Both the position numbers and the translations under genes were made by a program. A DNA stretch of 64,000 bases from Kappaphycus alvarezii (Eukaryota > Rhodophyta > Florideophyceae > Gigartinales > Solieriaceae), in NCBI GenBank assembly GCA_002205965.3, contig NADL03000506.1, positions 806,001 through 870,000 on the forward strand, read 5' to 3'. The notes beneath the pieces are model-generated. The model was not told the DNA's origin. It did not search any database and saw nothing but the letters and a program-made list of their open reading frames with translations. How positions within the stretch are numbered: position 1 is the first letter of the stretch; each line of letters begins with the position of its first letter. Below, in pieces: positions 36,473 through 48,587 of this stretch.

Positions 36473-36707
36473 TAACAGTGTTTTCGTCTTTTATCATTGG
36501 TGTACAGTCCAAATGTGCAACGTTGCAAAGTACTTAAAAGAAAACTAACAGTGTTTGGTCTGGGGTCTGAGAGGAGTTTTCGGCGTCACACGTGTACATG
36601 TGGTAATGCGTGAATACGTTTTCTGTAACACCTCTAGAGTAACAGAGAGTTTCTTAGATTGTTCTTGGGCTAATTACCCACGATGCGAAGCCTCCAGCAA
36701 GCTGATT
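36473..36707. other. Spacer between Harbinger element and LINE block
   Basis: If the Harbinger element inserted into the chromovirus leader, this stretch should be the displaced leader and 5' LTR of G2. It contains two copies of TAACAGTGTTT (36473 and 36547), but no recognisable PBS or LTR pair. Confidence 0.3.
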
Positions 36708-37095
36708 TTCGCCAAGTGGCGAGTGACACTTGGACGCGATCCGCGGAACTAACTCCTCGATAAACCCTAATGTACCAAGGGAAGGGGCACCCAGGGAATC
36801 AAACGCCGGAGGTCGAAACGTGAAGTGCGGCGTGTAAGGCGCAGAAGATGGGCTAGTTGAGGGAGCGGGGAGGCGTCGGGCGAGGTTGCGTTCCAGGGTT
36901 GTGACCTTGTCGCGGGCCGCCAGTTCAGTAGCGCCTCCGGCAACCTGGGTCGCCTTGGTGCGAAATGCGGCCTTAAACGGTGAGACCACAGTGAGGTCAC
37001 ACGCAATGGGGCGCAACGTTGTGCCTCCCGGGGTTGGGGGCGGTTGTACAAGGATATCGGCGGGCCGTAGCTCAGTGCCCGGGACGAGGAACGAA
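36708..37095 (-). pseudogene. LINE copy A, endonuclease fragment
   Basis: It encodes the C-terminal RLE-type endonuclease region (IACDLTVVSPFKAAF, ATELAARDKVTTLERNLARRL, LGFIEELVPRIASKCHS). It is about 95 percent identical to copy B (40992-41380) by eye. It begins abruptly at 36708 and is cut at 37095, where an inverted segment begins. Confidence 0.85.
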
Positions 37096-38095
37096 GAAAC
37101 TTTACTTCATTGAGTATCTACGGAACCTCATTATCCATCATGCCTCTCCACTCCCCCAACTCCCATGACTTCCCCTCTTCCTGCGGCCGCCGCGCCCTCT
37201 CCGTCTCCCGCGCGGCCGCCCTCTCCGCCCGCATGGACCGGGCAGACGCCCTCCCCCTGGATGCGCGCGCCGCACGCGGTCGTCGCATCCCGTCTTCCAC
37301 CCCGCCTATCCACGCTGCGTCCGTTACCGTCGGTGCAGCTCCCCGAAATCGACCCCGCTATTGGCCACAATATTCTCAATCTCCCGAAGGCGCGCCATAT
37401 GATTGGCCACCCGGAAGATTTTTCCCAAGCCTTGCCCGCACCCGCGCCGGCGCCCTCCTCGCCACCGTCACCGACAACCTCTGCCGCCTTGACCCCCGCA
37501 CGGACGAGCCCGAACCCGTTCGACCGCCTGCCCCCGACCTCCTCCACGTGGGATTTGCCCCGTCCACTACGTCCTCCTTCCCATCTTTCGACACCGCCCA
37601 CCGCCAGCTCTGCTGGCCGCCGCCCTTGCCAAGACAAACCTGCCCCCCTTCGTCCTAGTCCCGCATGTCGGGAAATGGTTCTACCTGTACTTTCCCGCCC
37701 CGGCCCGCCCTGACGTTTTCAACGTCCTTGCCCATCTTCGTCTCACGTATCCGGACCTGCACGTCTCGCCGCTTACGCTGACGCAGCACTGCTACACACT
37801 GGATATCTCTGCCGCCCAGGGTGTGGCCACCCGCCTCCAACGTGAAGCGGCTCGCCTGGTGAGCCCCAAGCTGCGCTCGTGGGTTGCCCCCCACGTCCGC
37901 AACGCCATGGCGATCGCCCTCCGTCACGATGCCCGCCTCATTACTGAGGCGCGCCGCCCGACCCGCGGGATTCCCGCCCGCACGCCCGCCCAAACACCGG
38001 CCGAAAATCCCGTCAAACCCACCGCCCCGGCCCCGACCAAACCCGTCCCGACCTCACCCGGCCCCGCACAAGCCCCCAAACGCCCCAACGGGGGC
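37096..38095 (+). mobile_element. Inverted LINE 5' segment (ORF1 region) inside copy A
   Basis: On the plus strand this segment carries the LINE 5' end: a short leader, then ATG (37140) and ORF1-like text (MIGHPEDF, DPAIGHNILNLPKARH), up to the ORF1 middle (GVATRLQREAARLVSPKLRSW). It matches the minus-strand segments 44270-45200 and 39880-40800. Its element 5' end lies at the inner junction (37096). Its interior end meets the RT fragment at 38095/38096 with a 2-nt CA overlap. The coding frame is broken by indels in the GC-rich part. Several long overlapping ORFs here are due to the low frequency of stop codons in GC-rich DNA. Confidence 0.8.
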
Positions 38096-39547
38096 ATGGA
38101 AGCCAACCGTGGGACAATCTCGGGCAAGGAGCCTGAGCGCCTGACGGATGGCGCCAAGGTTCCCGACGATCGTGCCGTCATCGGCGTACCATTGGCAGAG
38201 AGCAATGTTGGGGATCTCAGCAACCCGGCGGATGAGGGGTTGGATCGTTAGCGAGAACAACAATATGCTGGCCGGGTCACCCTGTTGGGTGCCCTGGGCA
38301 CTTGGTATGACGGTGCGATCCCGGTTCAGGACAAGCAATGGCGGTTGCATTCGGCCGTAGATCATCTTTGCGAAGCGGGCTAGCGAGGGGGCGAGCATTG
38401 GTTGGTGGTCCAGCATAGACTGCCGATCAACGCGGTTAAAGGCGTTGTTAGTGTCTATGAGGACCGTGGCGACGTTCGGGGTGGCGGAGAAGCGGCGTAG
38501 TGTCGTGCGGGTGTCGTGTACATTAGAGTCCAACCCGGCTCTAACACCGTTGGCCGTCTGGTGCGGCGACATAACCGAGTGTGAATCGGCTATTGCGGCC
38601 GGGAGCAGTGCCTTCGTCACTATCCTGCGAAGCACAGACCCGATGGCGATCGGGCGGACCTTGTCGGGAGTCGGCTGAAGCGGGAGGAGCGTCGCCGCTG
38701 CCACGAGGAGGAGCACAGCGTCCGGGAGTTCCCCCCGTGCGAGCCGAGAAACGAGCTGTGTCAGGACACGCAGACCGGTCACGCCGGCTTCGGGACTGAC
38801 GCGAGTCTTAACCAGGAGGTGGAACCAGCGGGACGGCGTTCGTTCGGGTCCGGCGGTGGTGTCCCGCGGGACGCCGCGGACCGCGTGTTCCGCAGCAGCC
38901 TCGGTGATGCACGGGGGCGGCGGGAGCCGTCCTTCCGGGAGCGGCGAGACAGGGCTCGGCGGGGACGGGTGCAGGTCCCGGAGTCGCTGAATCGTCGCCG
39001 GGTCGTTGACGTCGGCGAGCGGGCCATTGTGGAGGGCGCGCATGGCCATACCATAACGCGCATCGGCGCAAAGGGCCTCTGCACGACGGGCGCGCCCGAT
39101 GTCGCCGGGGACTGTTGGGGCGTACAGCGTGTTTCCTTCCCACCATTCTAGCCGAGCCTGATGAGCTGCGAGAGCTTCGGCCCAGAGTGCTCCCCACTGC
39201 GAGCCCGTGTGCGCACGACGGAGGCGTTCTCGGAGGGCGATCCGTTGGCTCTTGGGGTCCCGCCATCCGCGCTCTCCCCGAAGACAGCGACGGAGGACAG
39301 CCGTGGGCAGCATGTGGAGGTGAAGGAATGCTCGTTGAGTGGCGTCTTCCCCACGAGCATTTGCCGCAGCTTTGACCAGCTTGATAAACAGGAGGATAAA
39401 TTGGGTGAGGCAGGGAGCGGGGATATCTTGGAAGATATCCGTGTCGCGGTAGGGTGTTGAAAGGATTTCCAGGGGAGTGGGCAAGGGGAATGACGCCGAT
39501 GTATCATGCGGCGGGGGGTCCGATTCCATAGGGTGGACCGGATACAT
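38096..39547 (-). pseudogene. LINE copy A, reverse transcriptase
   Basis: A 497-codon open frame. The N-terminal part has TDIFQDIPAPCLTQFILLF, RARRAEALCADARYG and RALHNGPLADVNDPATI. The RT core has RPIAIGSVLRRIVTKALLP, VLIDTNNAFNRVDR, AQGTQQGDPAS and WYADDGTIVGN (catalytic box near 38179-38190). Unlike copy B, the frame is uninterrupted through the G-run near 38920, so this copy preserves the ancestral frame there. It ends at the inversion junction: the last 14 residues come from foreign sequence. Confidence 0.9.
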
Positions 39548-39599
39548 GGTGGGGAGGAGCGGAGTTAGGCCGACTGGCCTCTTGGCTGGTGGTGGGGCT

Positions 39600-40831
39600 C
39601 CTCCGCACCTTGTATGCCAGCCATCAACGGCTGCATGGGAACGTGCGATGCGGACTCCTTACCCATCGTTGCCGCGGAGGCGACGGTGGGAGGGAGAGCG
39701 GCCGTGGGAGCCAGTGGTGCGTTTGGCACCATAAGAAACTCCGAGGCCTGGCGTCTTCGGTTGCGGGGCATCGGCGTTTTGACGCCGACGGGGAAGAGCC
39801 CGGGGACCGAAGTGTGAGGTCGGATGTGTGTTGAGGGGCGGGGCGGGGAGCGGCAGGGGGGGAGGATGGTGTGCCCCCGTTGGGGCGTTTGGGGGCTTGT
39901 GCGGGGCCGGGTGAGGTCGGGACGGGTTTGGTCGGGGCCGGGGCGGTGGGTTTGACGGGATTTGGGGCCGGTGTTTGGGCGGGCGTGCGGGCGGAAATCC
40001 CGCGGGTCGGGCGGCGCGCCTCAGCAATGAGGCGGGCATCGTGACGGAGGGCGATCGCCATGGCGTTGCGGACGTGGGGGCAACCCACGAGCGCAGTTTG
40101 GGGCTCACCAGGCGAGCCGCTTCACGTTGGAGGCGGGTGGCCACACCCTGGGCGGCAGAGATATCCAGTGTGAGCAGTGCTGCGTGAGCGTAAGCGGCGA
40201 GACGTAGGTCCGGATACGTCAGACGGAGATGAGCGAGGACGTTGAAAACGTCAGGGCGGGCCGGGGCGGGAAAGTAAGTAGAACAATTTCCCGACAGCGG
40301 GACTAGGACGAAGGGGGGCAGGTTTGTCTTGGCAAGGGCGGCGGCCAAGCAGAGCTGGCGGTGGCGGTGTGTCGAAGATGGGAAGGAGGACGTAGGGACG
40401 GGGCAAATCCCACGTGGAGGAGGTCGGGGGCAGGCGGGCGAACGGGTCGGGTTCGCCCGTGCGGGGGTCGAGGCGGCAGGGTTGTCGGTGACGGTGGCGA
40501 GGAGGGCGCGGGCGCGGGCAAGGTCAGCCTGGAAAAAATCTTCCGGGTGGCCAATCATATGGCGCGCCTTCGGGAGATTGAGAATATTGTGGCCAATAGC
40601 GGGGTCGATTTCGGGGAGCTGCACCGATGGCAACGGACGCAGCGTGGAGGGGGTGGATGGGCGGGGTGGAAGACGGGATGCGACGACCGCGTACGGCGCG
40701 CGCATCCAGGGGAAGGCGTCTGCCCGGTCCATGCGGGCGGAGAGCGGCCGCGCGGGAGACGGAGAGGGCGCGGCGGCCGCAGGAAGGGGGGGGAAGTCAT
40801 GGGAGTTTGGGGAGTGGGAAGGAAGTTTAAT
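39600..40831 (-). pseudogene. LINE copy A, ORF1 region
   Basis: A 357-codon frame (39659-40732) spans ORF1: MIGHPEDFFQADLARARALL, FPAPARPDVFNVLAHLRLTY, TRLQREAARLVSPKLRSWVA, then a Pro/Ala-rich tail. It is colinear with copy B (44003-45216). It ends at AAGGAAGTTTAA (40820-40831), the same sequence as the copy B 5' border (45239-45250). Directly right of it begins the 3' end of copy B, so A and B are head-to-tail without a spacer. I do not recognise the ORF1 fold. Confidence 0.75.
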
Positions 40832-40875
40832 GCGTTCAGTATCTACTGGGGACTGCGCACGTCCTAACTATACGG

Positions 40876-41754
40876 TTAAGATCTAACCGGGTGTACTTCG
40901 TCGTCCATGCGCATCGGGGCTCGCGACAGGATAGCTTCAGCGATGGATGACCAGAGGGTGCAACTCAGTCGCTGGTAGATACGGCGGCGGATAACGCCAA
41001 CTGTCGAGTGACACTTGGACGCGATCCGCGGAACTAACTCCTCGATAAATGCAATAGTTCCAGGGGAAGGGGCACCTAGGGAATCAAACGCCAGAGGTCG
41101 AAACGTGAAGTTCGGCGTGTAAGGCGCAGAAGATGGGCCAGTTGAGGGAGCGGGGAGGCGTCGGGCGATGTTGCGTTCCAGGGTTGTGACCTTATCGCGG
41201 GCCGCCAGTTCAGCAGCGCCTCCGGCGACCTGGGTCGCCTTGGTGCGAACTGCGGCCTTAAACGGTGAGACGACAGTGATGTCACAGGCAATGGGGCGCA
41301 ACGTTGTGCCTTCCGGGGTTGGGGGCGGTTGTACAAGGATATCGGCGGGCCGGAGCTCAGTGCCCGGGACGAGGAACGGAACCTCGTGCCGAGTATCCAG
41401 ACCCGCGGCGCGGGTAACGTGTGTCGCAATCGCATTACAGAGCGAGTTATGGCGGTGACGACGGCCGAAACCAGGGCAGCAGAGGTCGGCGGCGTGATCC
41501 CCGAGGGTGTCCAAGGGGTGGTCACAGTGGTGGCAGTTGAGGGGCATGGAGTCATCATACACTGGCAGTCCGAGGTGACGGCGGAGCATGGTCTGCCAGT
41601 GTGTGGTGTGGACCTTCGTAGCTGCCGTGGGGTGAGCGAAGAGAAACGCCGCAGCGGGGCTGCGGCGGAACGCTAGCCACGGATGCGATGTCGAATGTCG
41701 GCGTCGCTGTGTGCGGTCGGGTTTGGGGCATTCGCCCAGGAGTCGTCGTGCCAA
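40876..41754 (-). pseudogene. LINE CCHC finger and restriction-like endonuclease (copy B)
   Basis: A 292-codon frame. HPWLAFRRSPAAAFLFAHPT leads to the zinc motif CHHCDHPLDTLGDHAADLC (CX2CX9HX4C). Next is a helix, GRRHRHNSLCNAIATHVTRA, then the endonuclease core VPGTELRPADILVQ (P..D) and LRPIACDITVVSPFK (D-I/V-T-V). This resembles the PD-(D/E)xK fold of R2-type elements. The C-terminal helical part contains VTTLERNIARRLPAP and IEELVPRIASKCHSTVGVIR, then RRRIYQRLSC. It ends with TAA at 40876. The enzyme would nick the genomic target for target-primed reverse transcription. Confidence 0.85.
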
Positions 41755-41835
41755 TGTACTCTTGCCCGCGCCTCTTGCTGCACCCGTTTGAGAAGGGTTA
41801 GAGTGTTGGTGGGTGAAGCAGCTAGAGTTGGAGGG

Positions 41836-43865
41836 TCAAGGGTGGAAAGGTCGACTATCCCGGGATGGAGAGGGCGAAACGGCGGAGAGAAGGCCCAGCC
41901 TGACGGAGGAGGAAGGACCGGTCGCCGCGGTAGCGGCCAGAAGCAAGTGCACAAGCACGCGGCGTGGCGTATGCGGAAGTTCGCTGCCGTGCGGGCGCAG
42001 CATCAATGATGCTGGCGGCGGCAGCGCCGTGGAGGCACGAGGCGATGCTTTCGAAGCCCTGACCTCCGAGGTGCATGGGGAGGCAGACTTGGTCCCAGGC
42101 TCGGTCGTGAGAGCTATGCCGTGTAACTTTTCATATGATGACCGTTGTAGATCATCAAATTCTTCTGCGGCGGACTCGGCTAAGCGCGGATCTGAGAGCT
42201 TGAATGCATGCGATAGGAGGCATGCAGAGGCACAGATCCGGTGCATGTGGAACCGGGCGCGGGCGTCGCGGACCAGCAGGAGGCGGTCCAGGGTCCGGCG
42301 GCACTGAGCAATCTTGGACCGGAGAAAACTCTCCGTGAACGCTTTGTTCCCAATGGGGGCCCCTAGAAGCGGAAAGCCGTCCCGCGAGCATTCTGCGAGA
42401 GGGAATTCCGCTAAGAGGGCTGCTCGATCCTGCGGCATGACGTGAGGCCAGTATATGCGTGTCTTTCGTGGGTTGACATGGAAGCCAACCGTGGGACCAT
42501 CTCGGGCAAGGAGCCTGAGCGCCTGACGGATGGCGCCAAGGTTCCCGACGATCGTGCCGTCATCGGCGTACCATTGGCAGAGAGCAATGTTGGGGATCTC
42601 AGCAACCCGACGGATGAGGGGTTGGATCGTTAGCGAGAACAACAACATGCTGGCCGGGTCACCCTGTTGGGTGCCCTGGGCACTTGGTATGACGGTGCGA
42701 TCCCGGTTCGGGACAAGCAATGGCGGTTGCATTCGGCCGTAGATCATGTTTGCGAAGCGGGCTAGCGAGGGGGCGAGCATTGGTAGGTGGTCCAGCATAG
42801 TCTGCCGATCAACGCGGTTAAAGGCGTTGTTAGCGTCTATGAGGACCGTGGCGACGTTCGGGGTGGCGGAGAAGCGGCGTAGTGTCGTGCGGGTGTCGTG
42901 TACAATAGAGTCCAACCCGGCTTTAACACCGTTGGCCGTCTGATGCGGCGACATAACCGAGTGTGAATCGGCTATTGCGGCCGGGAGCAGTGCCTTCGTC
43001 ACTATCCTGCGAAGCACAGACCCGATGGCGATCGGGCGGACCTTGTCTGGAGTCGGCTGAAGCGGGAGGAGCGTCGCCGCTGCCACGAGGGGGAGCACAG
43101 CGTCCGGGAGTTCCCCCCGTGCGAGCCGAGGAACGAGCTGTGTCAGGACACGCAGACCGGTCACGCCAGCTTCGGGACTGACGCGAGTCTTAACCAGGAG
43201 GTGGAACCAGCGGGACGGCGTTCGTTCGGGTCCGGCGGTGGTGTCCCGCGGGACGCCGCGGACCGCGTGTTCCACAGCAGCCTCGGTGATGCACGGGGCG
43301 GCGGGAGCCGTCCTTCCGGGAGCGGCGAGACAGGGGTCGGCGGGGACGGGTGCAGGTCCCGGAGTCGCTGAATCGTCGCCGGGTCGTTGACGTCGGCGAG
43401 CGGGCCATTGTGGAGGGCGCGCATGGCCTTACCATATCGCGCATCGGCGCAAAGGGCCTCTGCACGACGGGCGCGCCCGATGTCGCCGGGGACTGTTGGG
43501 GCGTACAGCGTGTTTCCTTCCCACCATTCTAGCCGAGCCTGATGAGCTGCGAGAGCTTCGGCCCAGAGTGCTCCCCACTGCGAGCCTGTGTGCGCACGAC
43601 GGAGGCGTTCTCGGAGGGCGATCCGTTGGCTCTTGGGGTCCCGCCATCCGCGCTCTCCCCGAAGACAGCGACGGAGGACAGCCGTGGGCAGCATGTGGAG
43701 GTGAAGGAATGCTCGTTGAGTGGCGTCTTCCCCACGAGCATTCGCCGCAGCTTTGACCAGCTTGATAAACAGGAGGATAAATTGGGTGAGGCAGGGAGCA
43801 GGGATATCTTGGAAGATATCCGTGTCGCGGTAGGGTGTTGAGAGGATTTCCAGGGGAGTGGGCAA
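41836..43865 (-). pseudogene. LINE reverse transcriptase (copy B)
   Basis: The frame from 43865 (MPTPLEILSTPYRDTDIF) runs to about 43290. There copy B has one G fewer in a G-run than copy A (about 43292 against 38920), shifting the frame. The RT core continues in the 43275-41836 frame: VTGLRVLTQLVPRLARGELP, RPIAIGSVLRRIVTKALLP, VLIDANNAFNRVDRQTML, AQGTQQGDPASM and CQWYADDGTIVGN (42559-42573). After NPRKTRIYWPHVMP and RRTLDRLLLVRDARARFHMH, another shift near 42080 moves the reading to the frame of 41855-42076 (LGGQGFESIASCLHGAAAA). Palm residues D and DD are intact. Confidence 0.9.
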
Positions 43866-44002
43866 GGGGAATGACGCCGATGTATCATGCGGCGGGGGTC
43901 CGATTCCATGGGTGGACCAGGTCCATGGTGGGGAGGAGCGGAGTTAGGCCGACTGGCCTCTTGGCTGGTGGTGGGGCTCCTCCGCACCTTGTATGCCAGC
44001 CA

Positions 44003-45216
44003 TCAACGGCTGCATGGGAACGTGCGATGCGGACTCCTTACCCATCGTTGCTGCGGAGGCGACGGTGGGAGGGAGAACGGCCGTGGGCGCCAGTGGTGCG
44101 TTGGGCACCATAAGAAACTCCGACGCCTGGGCGTCTTCGGTTGCGGGGCATCGGCGTTTTGACGCCGACGGGGAAGAGCCCGGGGACCGAAGTGTGAGGT
44201 CGGATGTGTGTTGAGGGGCGGGGCGGGGAGCAGCAGGGGGGGAGGATGGTGTGCCCCCGTTGGGGCGTTTGGGGCTTGTGCGGGGCCGGGTGAGGTCGGG
44301 ACGGGTTTGGTCGGGGCCGGGGCGGTGGGTTTGACGGGATTTGGGGCCGGTGTTTGGGCGGGCGTGCGGGCGGGAATCCCGCGGGTCGGGCGGCGCGCCT
44401 CAGCAATGAGGCGGGCATCGTGACGGAGGGCGATCGCCATGGCGTTGCGGACGTGGGGGGCAACCCACGAGCGCAGTTTGGGGCTCACCAGGCGAGCCGC
44501 TTCACGTTGGAGGCGGGTGGCCACACCCTGGGCGGCAGAGATATCCAGTGTGTAGCAGTGCTGCGTCAGCGTAAGCGGCGAGACGTGCAGGTCCGGATAC
44601 GTGAGACGAAGATGGGCAAGGACGTTGAAAACGTCAGGGCGGGCCGGGGCGGGAAAGTACAGGTAGAACCATTTCCCGACATGCGGGACTAGGACGAAGG
44701 GGGGCAGGTTTGTCTTGGCAAGGGCGGCGGCCAGCAGAGCTGGCGGTGGGCGGTGTCGAAAGATGGGAAGGAGGACGTAGTGGACGGGGCAAATCCCACG
44801 TGGAGGAGGTCGGGGGCAGGCGGTCGAACGGGTCCGGGCTCGCCCGTGCGGGAGTCGAGGCGGCAGGGGTTGTCGGTGACGGTGGCGAGGAGGGCGCGGG
44901 CGCGGGCAAGGTCAGCCTGGAAAAAATCTTCCGGGTGGCCAATCATATGGCGCGCCTTCGGGAGATTGAGAATATTGTGGCCAATAGCGGGGTCGATTTC
45001 GGGGAGCTGCACCGATGGCAACGGACGCAGCGTGGAGGGGGTGGATGGGCGGGGTGGAAGACGGGATGCGACGACCGCGTACGGCGCGCGCATCCAGGGG
45101 GAAGGCGTCTGCCCGGTCCATGCGGGCGGAGAGAGCGGCCGCGCGGGAGACGGAGAGGGCGCGGCGGCCGCAGGAAGGGGGGGGAAGTCATGGGAGTTGG
45201 GGGAGTGGGGAGGCAT
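44003..45216 (-). pseudogene. LINE ORF1-like protein (copy B)
   Basis: Start ATG at 45216 (MPPHSPNSHDFPPLPAAAAP), Ala/Pro-rich. Then LPSVQLPEIDPAIGHNILNL and MIGHPEDFFQADLARARALL, conserved in all three copies in the block. Next is a shift near 44880 into a Pro-rich part. After another shift near 44690 the frame reads FVLVPHVGKWFYLYFPAPAR, then DVFNVLAHLRLTYPDL and GVATRLQREAARLVSPKLRS (44690-44470). A Pro/Ala/Thr-rich tail ends near 44003. It may bind the element RNA, as ORF1 proteins do, but no known domain is visible. Whether it is separate from the RT protein or its N-terminus is unclear. Confidence 0.55.
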
Positions 45217-45335
45217 GATGGAATTGAAGAAGTGTAGGAAGGAAGTTTAAACAAAGGGAGAAATTTTGCACTTTTGTTTTTTTTGGAAAACAGATTTAAA
45301 TATTCTTCTAATTCCTCCTCTCAGCATCGGAAATA

Positions 45336-45433
45336 GCCACTGTGGCCGAGTGGTTTCGAGGCCTCAGTAAGGCGGTAGGCTTAAGACCTGCTTACCCTGA
45401 CGGGTAGCACGGGTTCGAACCCCGTCGGTGGCA
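45336..45433 (+). tRNA. tRNA-Leu(UAA) with a 13-nt D-loop insertion
   Basis: Acceptor stem GCCACTG pairs with CGGTGGC and A is the discriminator. The D stem is GCC/GGC. The anticodon arm GTAGG-CTTAAGA-CCTGC carries anticodon TAA. The long variable arm TACCC-TGAC-GGGTA and the T arm ACGGG-TTCGAAC-CCCGT identify a class II leucine tRNA. The D loop is 13 nt too long: between GAGTGGTT and AAGGC lies 45356-45368. Removing it gives an 85-nt standard tRNA-Leu. A T-run follows at 45438-45443 (Pol III terminator). No intron lies at the usual position 37/38. Confidence 0.93.
45356..45368 (+). other. Probable D-loop intron of tRNA-Leu
   Basis: TCGAGGCCTCAGT contains the palindrome GAGGCCTC and separates the D-loop halves GAGTGGTT and AAGGC. 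The exact edges are ambiguous by 1 nt because T flanks both ends. Small D-loop introns are reported in red-algal nuclear tRNAs. Splicing is inferred, not shown. Confidence 0.7.
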
Positions 45434-45437
45434 ACTC

Positions 45438-45443
45438 TTTTTT
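45438..45443 (+). terminator. RNA polymerase III terminator
   Basis: A run of six T (CTTTTTTC) starts 4 nt after the tRNA 3' end. Confidence 0.8.
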
Positions 45444-45681: not shown

Positions 45682-46842
45682 CTAGAGCGGTGGTAAACAA
45701 CGATCTGTTTGCTGATACTTTTCTAACCAAGCCCTCACTCGAGCTCTGCCCTCCTCAATATATTTCTTCGCGTCGCCACGCTTATCGTAAGTGTAGCGCG
45801 GGGGTGCAATTTTTGACGTGTCTTTCGGATGTGCCAAAGCGTAGTCAACATCTTCGACGCGGTTGCGCACCTTGATCTCTCCCCGATACTTGCTAGCTTG
45901 AAAATGGTTATAAACAAAGTTGATCCAGTAATCGTTATGAGCCGAGTTGTACGGGACGGGGTAATAGATACCTCCGAAAATCTCCATATGCATGCGAGTG
46001 GAGACATGAAACGTAAATGTTGCCCAGCTTGCCCACTCATCCTTGAACCTGACAATACCAAAGTAGCGACATGGTCTCTTGTGTCCCTTTGGTGAACCAA
46101 TACCTGCTAGGGAATCCCTGGAGCGCGAGACCCAGGCGTCGGTGAAAAAAACCATGTCATCGTTTGACAAGAAAAAGTAGTCACAGCCGTCATAGTATGC
46201 ATCCTTCGCCAAGACATTCCAAATGGCATTGATGCGACTGTGTAATCCGTATAATGGAGAAAAAACCAATTTGATGCCATCATGTTTAAATCCAGCCTGC
46301 TCGAGAATACGCCACGCCTCTGCCTCAAACTCTGCCCTCAAGGCAGCATCACCCAGGACAGCGTCATCACTATCATGTCCATAGTAGATGGAAAAACGAA
46401 AATCCCTTCGCTCGCCATCTGTAACGGTGGTTGCAAACGTGCGCAGAAAGGCTCTCAAGGCGATATGTTCGCGTGCGTCATCCGTAGACCAATGTGTTTT
46501 GCCAGCCGATAACGTGGGTTGCAAAATGCAGAAATGGTTGCCGAGATGTGACTGGGCACTGACAGCGGTGGCGTTGGCTGCATTGGCAAGGCGGGCGCGC
46601 AGAAGGGAATCTTCTTGAAGAAGGGAGGCGGCGGCGATTGCGTCATGGGATTCGCCGGTGCCGAGGTCTGTTTCGAGTGAGTTGGTGGGGGGATGGGCTT
46701 GGAGGTAGATGATGTACAGGAAGAGGACGAGGGAGATGAGATAAGCGGGGTGGAAGCGACGAAAGAGGTGACGTAAGCGGGAAATGGACTTGGAAAAGCG
46801 GGGCGATGAGCGAAGGGTGAACGCGGAGAGATTTCCAGCCAT
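45682..46842 (-). CDS. Type II membrane glycosyltransferase-like protein (GT-A type, putative)
   Basis: A 386-codon intact, single-exon ORF. Residues 1-31 are basic. Residues 32-49 (PAYLISLVLFLYIIYLQA) form a transmembrane segment. A Ser/Thr/Ala-rich stem follows, then a luminal domain from about residue 100. This is the layout of Golgi glycosyltransferases. Residues 221-237 (DYFFLSNDDMVFFTDAW) hold an NDDM motif that resembles the DXD metal/nucleotide-sugar site of GT-A enzymes. HND at 302-304 with YWINFVYN may be acceptor-side residues. The N-terminal luminal part includes HFCILQPTLS and RFSIYYGHDSDD. The exact GT family is not recognised and the substrate is unknown. It is the only intact protein gene in the window, 249 bp from the tRNA and surrounded by transposons. 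The ATG at 46842 is chosen because the membrane anchor follows directly. Confidence 0.8.
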   Translation of the reverse strand: MAGNLSAFTLRSSPRFSKSISRLRHLFRRFHPAYLISLVLFLYIIYLQAHPPTNSLETDLGTGESHDAIAAASLLQEDSLLRARLANAANATAVSAQSHLGNHFCILQPTLSAGKTHWSTDDAREHIALRAFLRTFATTVTDGERRDFRFSIYYGHDSDDAVLGDAALRAEFEAEAWRILEQAGFKHDGIKLVFSPLYGLHSRINAIWNVLAKDAYYDGCDYFFLSNDDMVFFTDAWVSRSRDSLAGIGSPKGHKRPCRYFGIVRFKDEWASWATFTFHVSTRMHMEIFGGIYYPVPYNSAHNDYWINFVYNHFQASKYRGEIKVRNRVEDVDYALAHPKDTSKIAPPRYTYDKRGDAKKYIEEGRARVRAWLEKYQQTDRCLPPL

Positions 46843-48587
46843 AGGAGGTGGGTGAAAGGGGTGGAGGGTGGAGGGTTTTGAGAAGGGGAAAGATGTAAGG
46901 ATGTAGGAAGGAAGAATTGGAGTAGCAGGAGTTCAGTAAAAAGGGGTCAGCGAAGGTTTGCTTGGGAGAATAAAGAAAGGACGCGAGCGGGATGACGGAT
47001 GGTTTGGCATGGATGTGGGGACAACAAAGCAACGGAGCATATGAGGATCGATGGTAAATTTAGTCATTCTTAAGCTTACTCGAGTGTACCGTTCGGTTAC
47101 AGTTTTGAACGTAATTTTAAGCAGCTAGTGCTTACATACAGGACTGTACATTACTGTACAAGCGACCTCACGATACAGTGCACCATACGTCACACCGACT
47201 GGGTATCAGGCGCAAACTCTGTCAAACAAAATACGTACAGTACTGCACAGTACAGAACTGAACACGTGAAGTTAACCCCTAAGGGCATTCCCGGAGAGTT
47301 CCGTGCCGCGGAAAAAAAGGGCCTTGTGCGCATGCTTAAGGGAAAGATGATATTCAGTCATTCAATAACTCTCCCATTAGGCGCATCGGCATTGCGAAGC
47401 ACGCACGACTTGCAGTCGTGGATGAGATCTCCACAGAGGAGAACGCAGAATAAATCGCCTTAACGCCGGGTAAAGGGGCGCAGAGACCAGAACAGTATCT
47501 TCTTCACTTTGCTAGACATCGCTAATGAAGGTCGGGCTTTGTGAAACACTCTCACACTCTTCAACAGTCAGCCGACCATATCTTTCAAGTATTATACCGT
47601 AGCACCCTGCGCTTCCACCCTCTCACAAATTTTCAAATACAGCTTCCCGAATCTCATCATAACTCTAGACGCAGAACCAGTCTTATACAAGTATTCTGGA
47701 CCTGAGTGGATCACCTCATAACGTTGTACACAGCTCGTCCTTACACATGATGTTGTTGCATCACACGCTTTGCATCCGACCCATGCTGAGATCACTTGTC
47801 ATCTGAACTCAGCGGGTATCGCTTTTTAAGTAGTCATGGAAAGGCCGTGGCATGTGTACGGAGAGCAAGATATCCACTTCTCGGCTGACGTGGAACACCC
47901 GATAAGTTCTTAGCTGTATCATTCGGACACAGTTCCTTTCGGCAGGACAGCTTTTCTTACAGTAACTGAAAATAGAGGAGTCTTAACGGAAGACACATCC
48001 CGGTATACTGCATGTGGACTGTAAGGCAAAAAGGAACAAGGGCGGGAGGAATATATGTACTGCACAGCAAAAGGGCTGCTTTGCTCAACTGCAGCTGAAA
48101 GGGAGAGTTGCGCTCTGTAAACTGTTACGTAAGTGAAATACAGTATGTACTGTACAGTACAGCAGGTGTCCAAAATTGCTGAATACTGTAGCCATATTTA
48201 CAGTAAGCCAATTAATGAGCCAGATTTCCAAAAAAAGGAACTCAGTAGCGTCCCTTTAATTCATTTGGCACACGTGGACCATCTAGTAAGATCTTAACTA
48301 CTGTAAATAAAGTGGTGACAATGCTTGCCTCAGACATGGCCACGGCGGCTTGACATCCTTTCCTACCTCCACGTCGATAGGTTTGGTGAACATTTATACA
48401 AACTCCTGACTAATGAAAGCCACCTAGTGGGCTATGTTGTAGGTGCGCATGCGGATTACCCTAACAGATGTGTTGGATTTCTCCGCGAAGCGCTACAAGA
48501 GACCCTCTACGAAAAAGATGGTAGCAGGGGAAGGCGAACCCAGAAAATCGAAGGTCCGCGGCTGGAACTCGAAATTGGGGGCCTGTG
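46843..48587. other. No gene recognised; TACAGTA/TACTGTA-rich
   Basis: Upstream of the glycosyltransferase gene lies a CT-rich/GA-rich stretch (46850-47020) that may be its 5' flank. A 111-codon plus ORF (47128-47463) and an acidic 115-codon plus ORF (48325-48672) show no known domain. GTACTGTAC-type palindromes cluster at 47140-47260 and 48130-48190. Confidence 0.35.

What the first reader, a model, noticed from the sequence alone, without database searches (positions are those of the whole stretch)
45336..45433. tRNA-Leu(UAA) with an insertion in the D-loop that looks like a non-canonical intron
All arms fold perfectly only if 13 nt (45356-45368) in the D-loop are removed. The usual intron position 37/38 is empty. 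D-loop introns are known from red algae such as Cyanidioschyzon, but are rare elsewhere. The insert contains the palindrome GAGGCCTC. This is the best taxonomic clue in the window and a processing question of its own: the normal tRNA splicing endonuclease would have to accept a D-loop site.
Basis: partly seen in the sequence, partly recalled or inferred. Interest (0 to 1): 0.75.

Follow-up and report, generated by a model that had tools for sequence, protein, structure and literature searches.

The report
Red seaweed tRNA genes with D-loop introns
In a red seaweed related to Gracilaria, the genes found for one leucine transfer RNA, and some for two serine ones, are interrupted in an unusual place by 11 to 13 extra letters that very probably have to be cut out of the RNA, so odd tRNA gene structures known from a hot-spring microalga also occur in seaweeds.

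Summary
Window 45336-45433 is a tRNA-Leu(UAA) gene with 13 extra nt in the D-loop; without them all 26 stem pairs form. A neighbouring protein places the contig in a florideophyte red alga near Gracilariaceae. The window's own assembly (336 Mb) decided most of the question. The one other Leu(UAA) gene found has the same insert: 85 of 85 exon letters identical, 4 of 13 insert letters different. Ser(GCU) and Ser(UGA) genes carry 11-13 nt inserts at the same site, each in two copies. Pooled: exons 0 of 247 differences, inserts 12 of 37 plus one indel, flanks 82 of 294; an intronless Ser(GCU) gene has the identical 81 exon letters. That is how introns behave. All four Ser inserts can form a 4-bp helix with the D-loop in bulge-helix-bulge geometry; the Leu inserts cannot, so Leu splice-site recognition is unexplained. 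Matches to Sen54, Sen15, tRNA_int_endo and RtcB exist. Three loci look like circularly permuted tRNA-Leu(CAG) genes. No RNA data were at hand: splicing is inferred, not shown.

The parts
45336..45433 (+). tRNA-Leu(UAA) gene, 98 nt with the insert, 85 nt without
   Evidence: Rfam RF00005 47.8 bits; ARAGORN tRNA-Leu(taa) after removal of the insert
45336..45355 (+). 5' exon (positions 1-20a)
   Evidence: identical in the second copy on C587
45356..45368 (+). 13-nt D-loop intron between positions 20a and 21 (letters also allow 45355-45367)
   Evidence: 4 of 13 letters differ in the C587 copy, exons 0 of 85; same site as the Ser(GCU) and Ser(UGA) inserts
45369..45433 (+). 3' exon (positions 21-73)
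   Evidence: identical in the second copy
45382..45384 (+). anticodon UAA in loop CTTAAGA; no intron at 37/38
   Evidence: sequence and ARAGORN on the spliced form
45343..45353 (+). A box TGGCCGAGTGG, left intact because the insert lies just behind it
45412..45422 (+). B box GGTTCGAACCC
45294..45304 (+). TATA-like box ATTTAAATATT; TTTAAATATT is kept in the C587 copy although the surroundings differ
45438..45443 (+). T6, a likely RNA polymerase III terminator
   Evidence: kept in the C587 copy

Best explanation
This is a working nuclear tRNA-Leu(UAA) gene of a florideophyte red alga whose precursor carries a 13-nt intron in the D-loop, between positions 20a and 21. Shown by sequence: Pol III signals are present, the exons are under strong selection in both copies, the insert drifts like the flanks, and the same site is interrupted in Ser(UGA) and in some Ser(GCU) genes. 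Inferred: Pol III transcribes the gene, the tRNA splicing endonuclease (matches to Sen54, Sen15 and the catalytic domain are in the genome) cuts on both sides of the insert, and a ligase (an RtcB match is in the genome) joins the halves into the 85-nt tRNA. In the Ser precursors the D-loop letters G15-U16-G18-G19 can pair with CCAC (or CCGU) of the intron and put both cuts in small bulges or loops, a bulge-helix-bulge-like site. How the Leu cut sites are recognised, where this helix is missing, is open.
For: Leu(UAA): only two genes found in the assembly, both with a 13-nt insert, exons 0 of 85 different, insert 4 of 13 (Fisher p = 2e-4). The two lie in homologous regions about 90% identical; at 5-9% substitution the chance of 0 of 85 is 0.013 to 0.00025. 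Ser(GCU) C61/C585: 13-nt inserts differ at 5 of 13, exons 0 of 81, and an intronless Ser(GCU) gene on C64 has the same 81 letters. Ser(UGA) C540/C813: inserts of 11 and 12 nt, exons 0 of 81, plus an ordinary 37/38 intron. Pooled exon 0/247, insert 12/37, flank 82/294: insert v exon p = 4e-12, insert v flank p = 0.57. Central helix 4 of 4 pairs in all four Ser inserts, 7-12.5% of shuffles each; the two differences inside it in C585 keep pairing; in both Ser(UGA) precursors D-stem and helix have pair probabilities 0.86-0.99. SEN and ligase matches. Permuted-looking Leu(CAG) loci in the same genome would need the same processing. Precedent: C. merolae has D-arm introns, and its permuted Leu(UAA) is joined at 20/21 (PMC9602550, PMC3978253).
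Against: No RNA evidence. No strict bulge-helix-bulge in either Leu copy; a relaxed 3-bp helix GAG/CUC is met by 19% of shuffles and makes the C587 precursor less stable. In the Ser(GCU) precursors the helix has probability 0.08 (C61) and 0.00 (C585) in the whole-precursor fold. Short D-arm inserts in eukaryotes have been taken as pseudogene marks (PMC4090602, passages). The search for Leu(UAA) genes used patterns and the assembly may be incomplete.
Confidence: 0.87

Rival explanations
1. The insert is kept: the mature tRNA has a D-loop of some 23 nt and works nevertheless.
For: No splice motif is visible in the Leu copies. Both Leu inserts are exactly 13 nt.
Against: Insert length differs between the two Ser(UGA) genes (11, 12) and insert letters drift like the flanks; an intronless Ser(GCU) gene has the same 81 exon letters; with the insert the D-stem has pairing probability near 0 in both Leu copies (weak, since 289 of 400 shuffled inserts also give less than 0.1, and even the spliced form reaches only 0.28); the Ser inserts form a splice-site-like helix.
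Confidence: 0.08
2. The gene is a dead copy with a chance insertion, and another gene supplies tRNA-Leu(UAA).
For: Such inserts are mostly seen in one of many synonymous copies (PMC4090602).
Against: Both Leu(UAA) genes found carry it; exons 0 of 85 different in about 90% identical surroundings; Pol III signals kept; three isoacceptors interrupted at the same place.
Confidence: 0.03
3. The interruption is 11 nt at 22/23 to 25/26, not 13 nt in the D-loop.
For: In the window copy this also gives a full cloverleaf.
Against: It puts G at position 21; the C587 copy lacks the needed GGC; the Ser genes point to 20a/21.
Confidence: 0.01
4. The insert is removed, but by something other than the SEN endonuclease.
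For: Leu copies lack a bulge-helix-bulge site; many Guillardia nucleomorph tRNA introns lack a defined one too, and removal was seen by RT-PCR according to the reviews (PMC3978253, PMC4090602).
Against: Ser inserts at the same site have a near-proper site; SEN matches are present.
Confidence: 0.1

Closest known systems
Non-canonical (ectopic) tRNA introns of Cyanidioschyzon merolae, e.g. tRNA-Ile(UAU) with a D-arm intron at 12/13 and permuted tRNA-Arg(CCU) with an intron at 14/15
   Same: Short introns in the D-arm of nuclear tRNA genes of a red alga, sometimes with a second intron at 37/38 as in Ser(UGA) here
   Different: Here one site only (20a/21), in three class II isoacceptors, in a florideophyte; Leu without a bulge-helix-bulge
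Permuted tRNA-Leu(UAA) of C. merolae, type I, junction 20/21
   Same: Same isoacceptor, same place in the D-loop where the precursor must be cut and joined
   Different: There the halves are swapped and a 37/38 intron is present; here the order is normal and 37/38 is empty
Ectopic tRNA introns of the Guillardia theta nucleomorph (a red-algal remnant)
   Same: Very short introns in D and T arms, many without a defined bulge-helix-bulge, removal seen by RT-PCR according to the reviews read
   Different: Reduced nucleomorph genome; here a large nuclear genome
Archaeal (Crenarchaeota, Thermoproteales) non-canonical tRNA introns
   Same: Introns at positions other than 37/38, removed through bulge-helix-bulge sites
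   Different: Other domain of life, other endonuclease architecture

Membership tests
Ectopic tRNA introns of red algae | Nuclear tRNA gene interrupted at a position other than 37/38 | tested here: met
   insert between 20a and 21, exons form a full tRNA
Ectopic tRNA introns of red algae | Exons conserved, insert not | tested here: met
   Exons 0 of 247, inserts 12 of 37 over three pairs
Ectopic tRNA introns of red algae | Bulge-helix-bulge at the exon-intron borders | tested here: inconclusive
   Ser: 4 of 4 central pairs in 4 of 4 inserts, but the helix dominates the whole-precursor fold only in Ser(UGA). Leu: not met, 2 of 4 central pairs in both copies; not all known members have a defined motif
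Ectopic tRNA introns of red algae | Mature RNA without the insert observed | not testable with these tools
   No RNA data
Ectopic tRNA introns of red algae | Host is a red alga or red-algal remnant | tested here: met
   Neighbour protein 79% identical over 74% of the query to Agarophyton chilense, 89% to a GFKZ transcript whose species the output does not name
Pseudogene with D-arm insertion | Relaxed exon sequence or an intact gene elsewhere | tested here: not met
   Exons identical; no intact Leu(UAA) found by the patterns
Circularly permuted tRNA (considered for the window gene) | 3' half upstream of 5' half | tested here: not met
   Window gene has normal order; three other loci in the genome look permuted

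The most novel reading that the evidence does not exclude
The D-loop site 20/21 of tRNA-Leu(UAA) was already interrupted in the common ancestor of red algae: florideophytes keep it as an intron, and in Cyanidioschyzon a tandem copy of such an intron gene lost its outer halves and became the permuted tRNA-Leu(UAA) joined at 20/21. Disrupted tRNA genes, D-loop introns and permuted genes alike, would then be an old trait of the whole phylum, overlooked because gene finders misread them, and permutation would be derived from ectopic introns.
Probability: 0.3. Interest if true: 0.82.

Novelty: new member of a known kind. Interest (0 to 1): 0.66.

Why it matters
In the papers I could search, non-canonical tRNA introns of the red-algal line come from an extremophile microalga and a nucleomorph, both with reduced genomes. 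Finding them in a large seaweed genome, with an identical intronless Ser(GCU) gene as built-in control and permuted-looking genes beside them, makes the cutting rules directly testable: why one D-loop site, why only class II tRNAs among those seen, and how the Leu precursor is cut without the usual motif. It also warns annotators: ARAGORN in intron mode calls the window gene Leu(tag) with a 6-nt intron, and at gathering threshold Rfam lists neither of two of the Ser copies and misplaces a third, which could make the UUA codon look undecoded.

Tried and rejected
Strict bulge-helix-bulge in the Leu copy: 4 of 10 pairs, 696 of 1000 shuffles as good. Relaxed helix GAG/CUC: 3 bp, 19% of shuffles. 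The strong quasi-palindrome of the first 38 nt (24 of 1000 shuffles as stable) is not kept in the C587 copy (-16.8 v -9.7 kcal/mol), so rejected as functional. 11-nt reading: rejected by the C587 copy. Related tRNAs in virus contigs and prokaryote genomes: none (one chance hit in a planctomycete contig without a tRNA); neighbour protein in virus contigs: no relative. Translating the tRNA to look for spurious ORFs of relatives: no candidate. A DNA search of the assembly with the tRNA itself did not complete. The general tRNA search scored 63 of 11601 candidates and does not list the window gene, so it is no census. D-loop inserts in class I tRNAs, one D-stem type only (GCTCA..GAGC): 5 matches against 6 in the reversed control, none tRNA-like in the letters shown. 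A Ser(AGA) candidate with a long D-loop insert (C598/C609; 4 matches against 25 in the control) has no T arm that I can see, no ARAGORN and no Rfam hit, and was rejected; ordinary Ser(AGA) genes exist, 3 of 8 read, none with an insert. One search was void: wrong spacing, it could not even find the window gene. Of the 37 matches (114 in the reversed control, so a noisy pattern) 30 were read with surroundings, 7 judged by the matched letters. Of the 62 matches (10 in the control), 36 were taken with surroundings; five further long-gap strings (C546, C652, C675, C692, C809) were not examined, C652 being a near twin of C166, which is no tRNA. The leader-trailer pairing of the permuted loci is not strong by itself: 271, 24 and 59 of 1000 shuffles as good.

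Full report
What is there. Window 45336-45433 (+) is a tRNA-Leu(UAA) gene; Rfam gives 47.8 bits with 15 D-loop letters where the model has 1. With 13 nt removed, all 26 stem pairs are standard pairs and ARAGORN reads tRNA-Leu(taa); with them in place ARAGORN finds nothing without introns, and a Leu(tag) with a 6-nt intron in intron mode. A box (45343-45353), B box (45412-45422), a TATA-like box (45294-45304) and a T6 run (45438-45443) are present. The insert lies just behind the A box.

Whose genome. The protein encoded next door (45682-46932, minus) is 89% identical to a transcript-derived protein GFKZ01008629 (species not named in the output), 79% over 74% of its length to Agarophyton chilense and 47% over 72% to Porphyridium purpureum: a florideophyte red alga, probably Gracilariaceae or near it. 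The window is part of an unnamed 336-Mb assembly of 884 contigs, which also holds bacterial-type tRNAs with an encoded CCA, so some contigs are not algal nuclear DNA.

The second Leu(UAA) gene. A pattern for the Leu(UAA) anticodon loop plus T loop gave 37 matches (114 in the reversed control); 30 were read with surroundings and two of these are tRNA genes, the window's and one on C587; the other 7 were judged by the matched letters. The two genes have the same length. Exons: 85 of 85 identical. Insert: 4 of 13 different. The regions are homologous: window 45271-53142 matches C587 in three collinear pieces at about 90% identity, so they are alleles, homeologues or a duplication; I cannot tell which. 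The TATA-like box and the T run are kept. A class II D-arm plus anticodon pattern gave 43 matches (4 in the control): by their letters 35 distinct tRNA-like loci, 4 further matches overlapping these, and 4 that are not tRNA-like; the same two are the only Leu(UAA) among them. Most of these loci were judged by the matched letters only.

The same site elsewhere. One search (62 matches, 10 in the reversed control) showed four more tRNA genes with inserts at the same place, read: Ser(GCU) on C61 and C585 (13 nt each) and Ser(UGA) on C540 and C813 (11 and 12 nt, plus a 10-nt intron at 37/38). Of Ser(GCU) genes of nuclear type found, 2 of 4 have the insert; the intronless one on C64 has exactly the same 81 exon letters, the one on C658 lacks one letter. 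Of nuclear-type Ser(UGA) found, 2 of 2 have it; a third Ser(UGA) match (C534) is bacterial in type. The Leu(AAG), Leu(CAG), Leu(UAG), Leu(CAA) and Ser(CGA) matches have none. So 6 of the 35 loci carry the insert, always between GGTT and AAGGC, positions 20a/21.

Intron-like behaviour. Over the three pairs, exons differ at 0 of 247 sites, D-loop inserts at 12 of 37 plus one indel, the 37/38 intron at 2 of 10, and flanks of up to 50 nt on each side at 82 of 294. Insert against exon p = 4e-12, insert against flank p = 0.57, exon against flank p = 8e-25 (flanks were aligned end to end, which may inflate their count). The exons are selected as tRNA; the inserts are not.

How it is probably cut. In the four Ser inserts the exon letters G15 U16 G18 G19 can pair with CCAC (C61, C540, C813) or CCGU (C585), placed so that UU^N and NN^A flank the helix: 4 of 4 pairs in all four, against 7-12.5% of shuffled inserts each; the two changed letters in C585 keep pairing as G-U pairs. 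The isolated D-arm takes this fold in 3 of 4 Ser inserts and loses one pair in C585. In the whole precursor the D-stem and the helix have pair probabilities 0.86-0.99 in both Ser(UGA) genes, whose predicted fold keeps acceptor stem and anticodon arm but draws the T arm differently; in Ser(GCU) the helix is not favoured (0.08 and 0.00). The two Leu inserts have 2 of 4 pairs and no convincing alternative. The genome has matches to tRNA_int_endo (5 places: C5 twice, C697, C33, C782), the Sen54 N-terminal domain (C608, C645), Sen15 (C530, 35.4 bits, cut-off 22) and RtcB (C530, in pieces, one with an in-frame TGA); none of these genes was studied further. According to the reviews read, no Sen15 was found in C. 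merolae (PMC3978253 section 8, PMC4090602 passages), so its loss is not needed for such introns if this match is real. The enzyme step and ligation are inference.

Permuted-looking genes. Three loci (C19, C54, C497; L065, L069, L083) have the 3' half of a tRNA, 7 nt, then the 5' half. Joined the other way round they are tRNA-Leu(CAG) in 3 of 3 (ARAGORN), junction at 29/30 in the anticodon stem, with TATAAATA 58, 58 and 66 nt before the 3' half. Leader and trailer can pair, but 271, 24 and 59 of 1000 shuffles do as well. Against: in two of the three, ARAGORN in intron mode also reads the leader plus 3' half as a linear tRNA-Leu(CAG), with two mismatches in the acceptor stem; the permuted reading has a full acceptor stem and the usual A box. 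The anatomy is that described for permuted tRNA genes in C. merolae (PMC3978253 section 4 part 1). There, Leu(UAA) (20/21) and Leu(CAG) (37/38) are permuted; here the same two isoacceptors are an intron gene interrupted at 20a/21 and a gene apparently joined at 29/30. That parallel is suggestive, no more.

Known or new. Seen: PMC3978253 (passages, section 4 part 1, section 8), PMC4090602, PMC9602550, PMC10496412, PMC8450103 and PMC9023262 as passages, PMC6461891 by a term search without hits (29). Soma 2007, Soma 2013 and Kawach 2005 were not seen and are cited through these. Searches, limited to open-licence PubMed Central papers, listed no title or abstract start reporting non-canonical tRNA introns or permuted tRNA genes in a florideophyte. 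The kind of feature is known; this is a new member, with one fixed site and an unexplained Leu splice site.

Verdict. Main gap: no RNA.

Noticed in passing
L065, L069, L083 (G000 C19:244842, C54:430468, C497:2251604): Loci that look like circularly permuted tRNA-Leu(CAG) genes: 53-nt 3' half, 7 nt, 30-nt 5' half; joined they are tRNA-Leu(CAG) in 3 of 3. In the 2014 review read, permuted tRNAs of red algae are listed only from Cyanidioschyzon. In two loci ARAGORN also offers a poorer linear reading.
   Followed up: partly
L070, L094, L093, L096: Ser(GCU) and Ser(UGA) genes with D-loop introns; Ser(UGA) has a second intron at 37/38. At gathering threshold Rfam finds only L096 properly, misplaces L070 and lists neither L093 nor L094.
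   Followed up: yes
window 36654-45222: Copies of a reverse transcriptase element (RVT_1; probably non-LTR): 38095-40822 and 42477-45213 are 97.5% identical, 37134-38096 is inverted to 45222-44252. The nearest end stops about 114-122 bp before the tRNA gene; the C587 region has a shorter stretch of the same element beside its tRNA gene.
   Followed up: partly
window 45682-46932 (-): Conserved red-algal protein of 386 aa without a Pfam match, with relatives in Agarophyton, Porphyridium and others.
   Followed up: no
G000 assembly: Several loci occur as two similar copies on different contigs (C502/C587, C61/C585, C540/C813, C33/C782; perhaps C5/C697), about 90% identical where measured (C502/C587): two haplotypes, subgenomes or large duplications.
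   Followed up: partly
L102 (G000 C658:802300-802420): An intronless Ser(GCU) gene lacking one letter compared with the C64 copy; possibly a dead copy.
   Followed up: no
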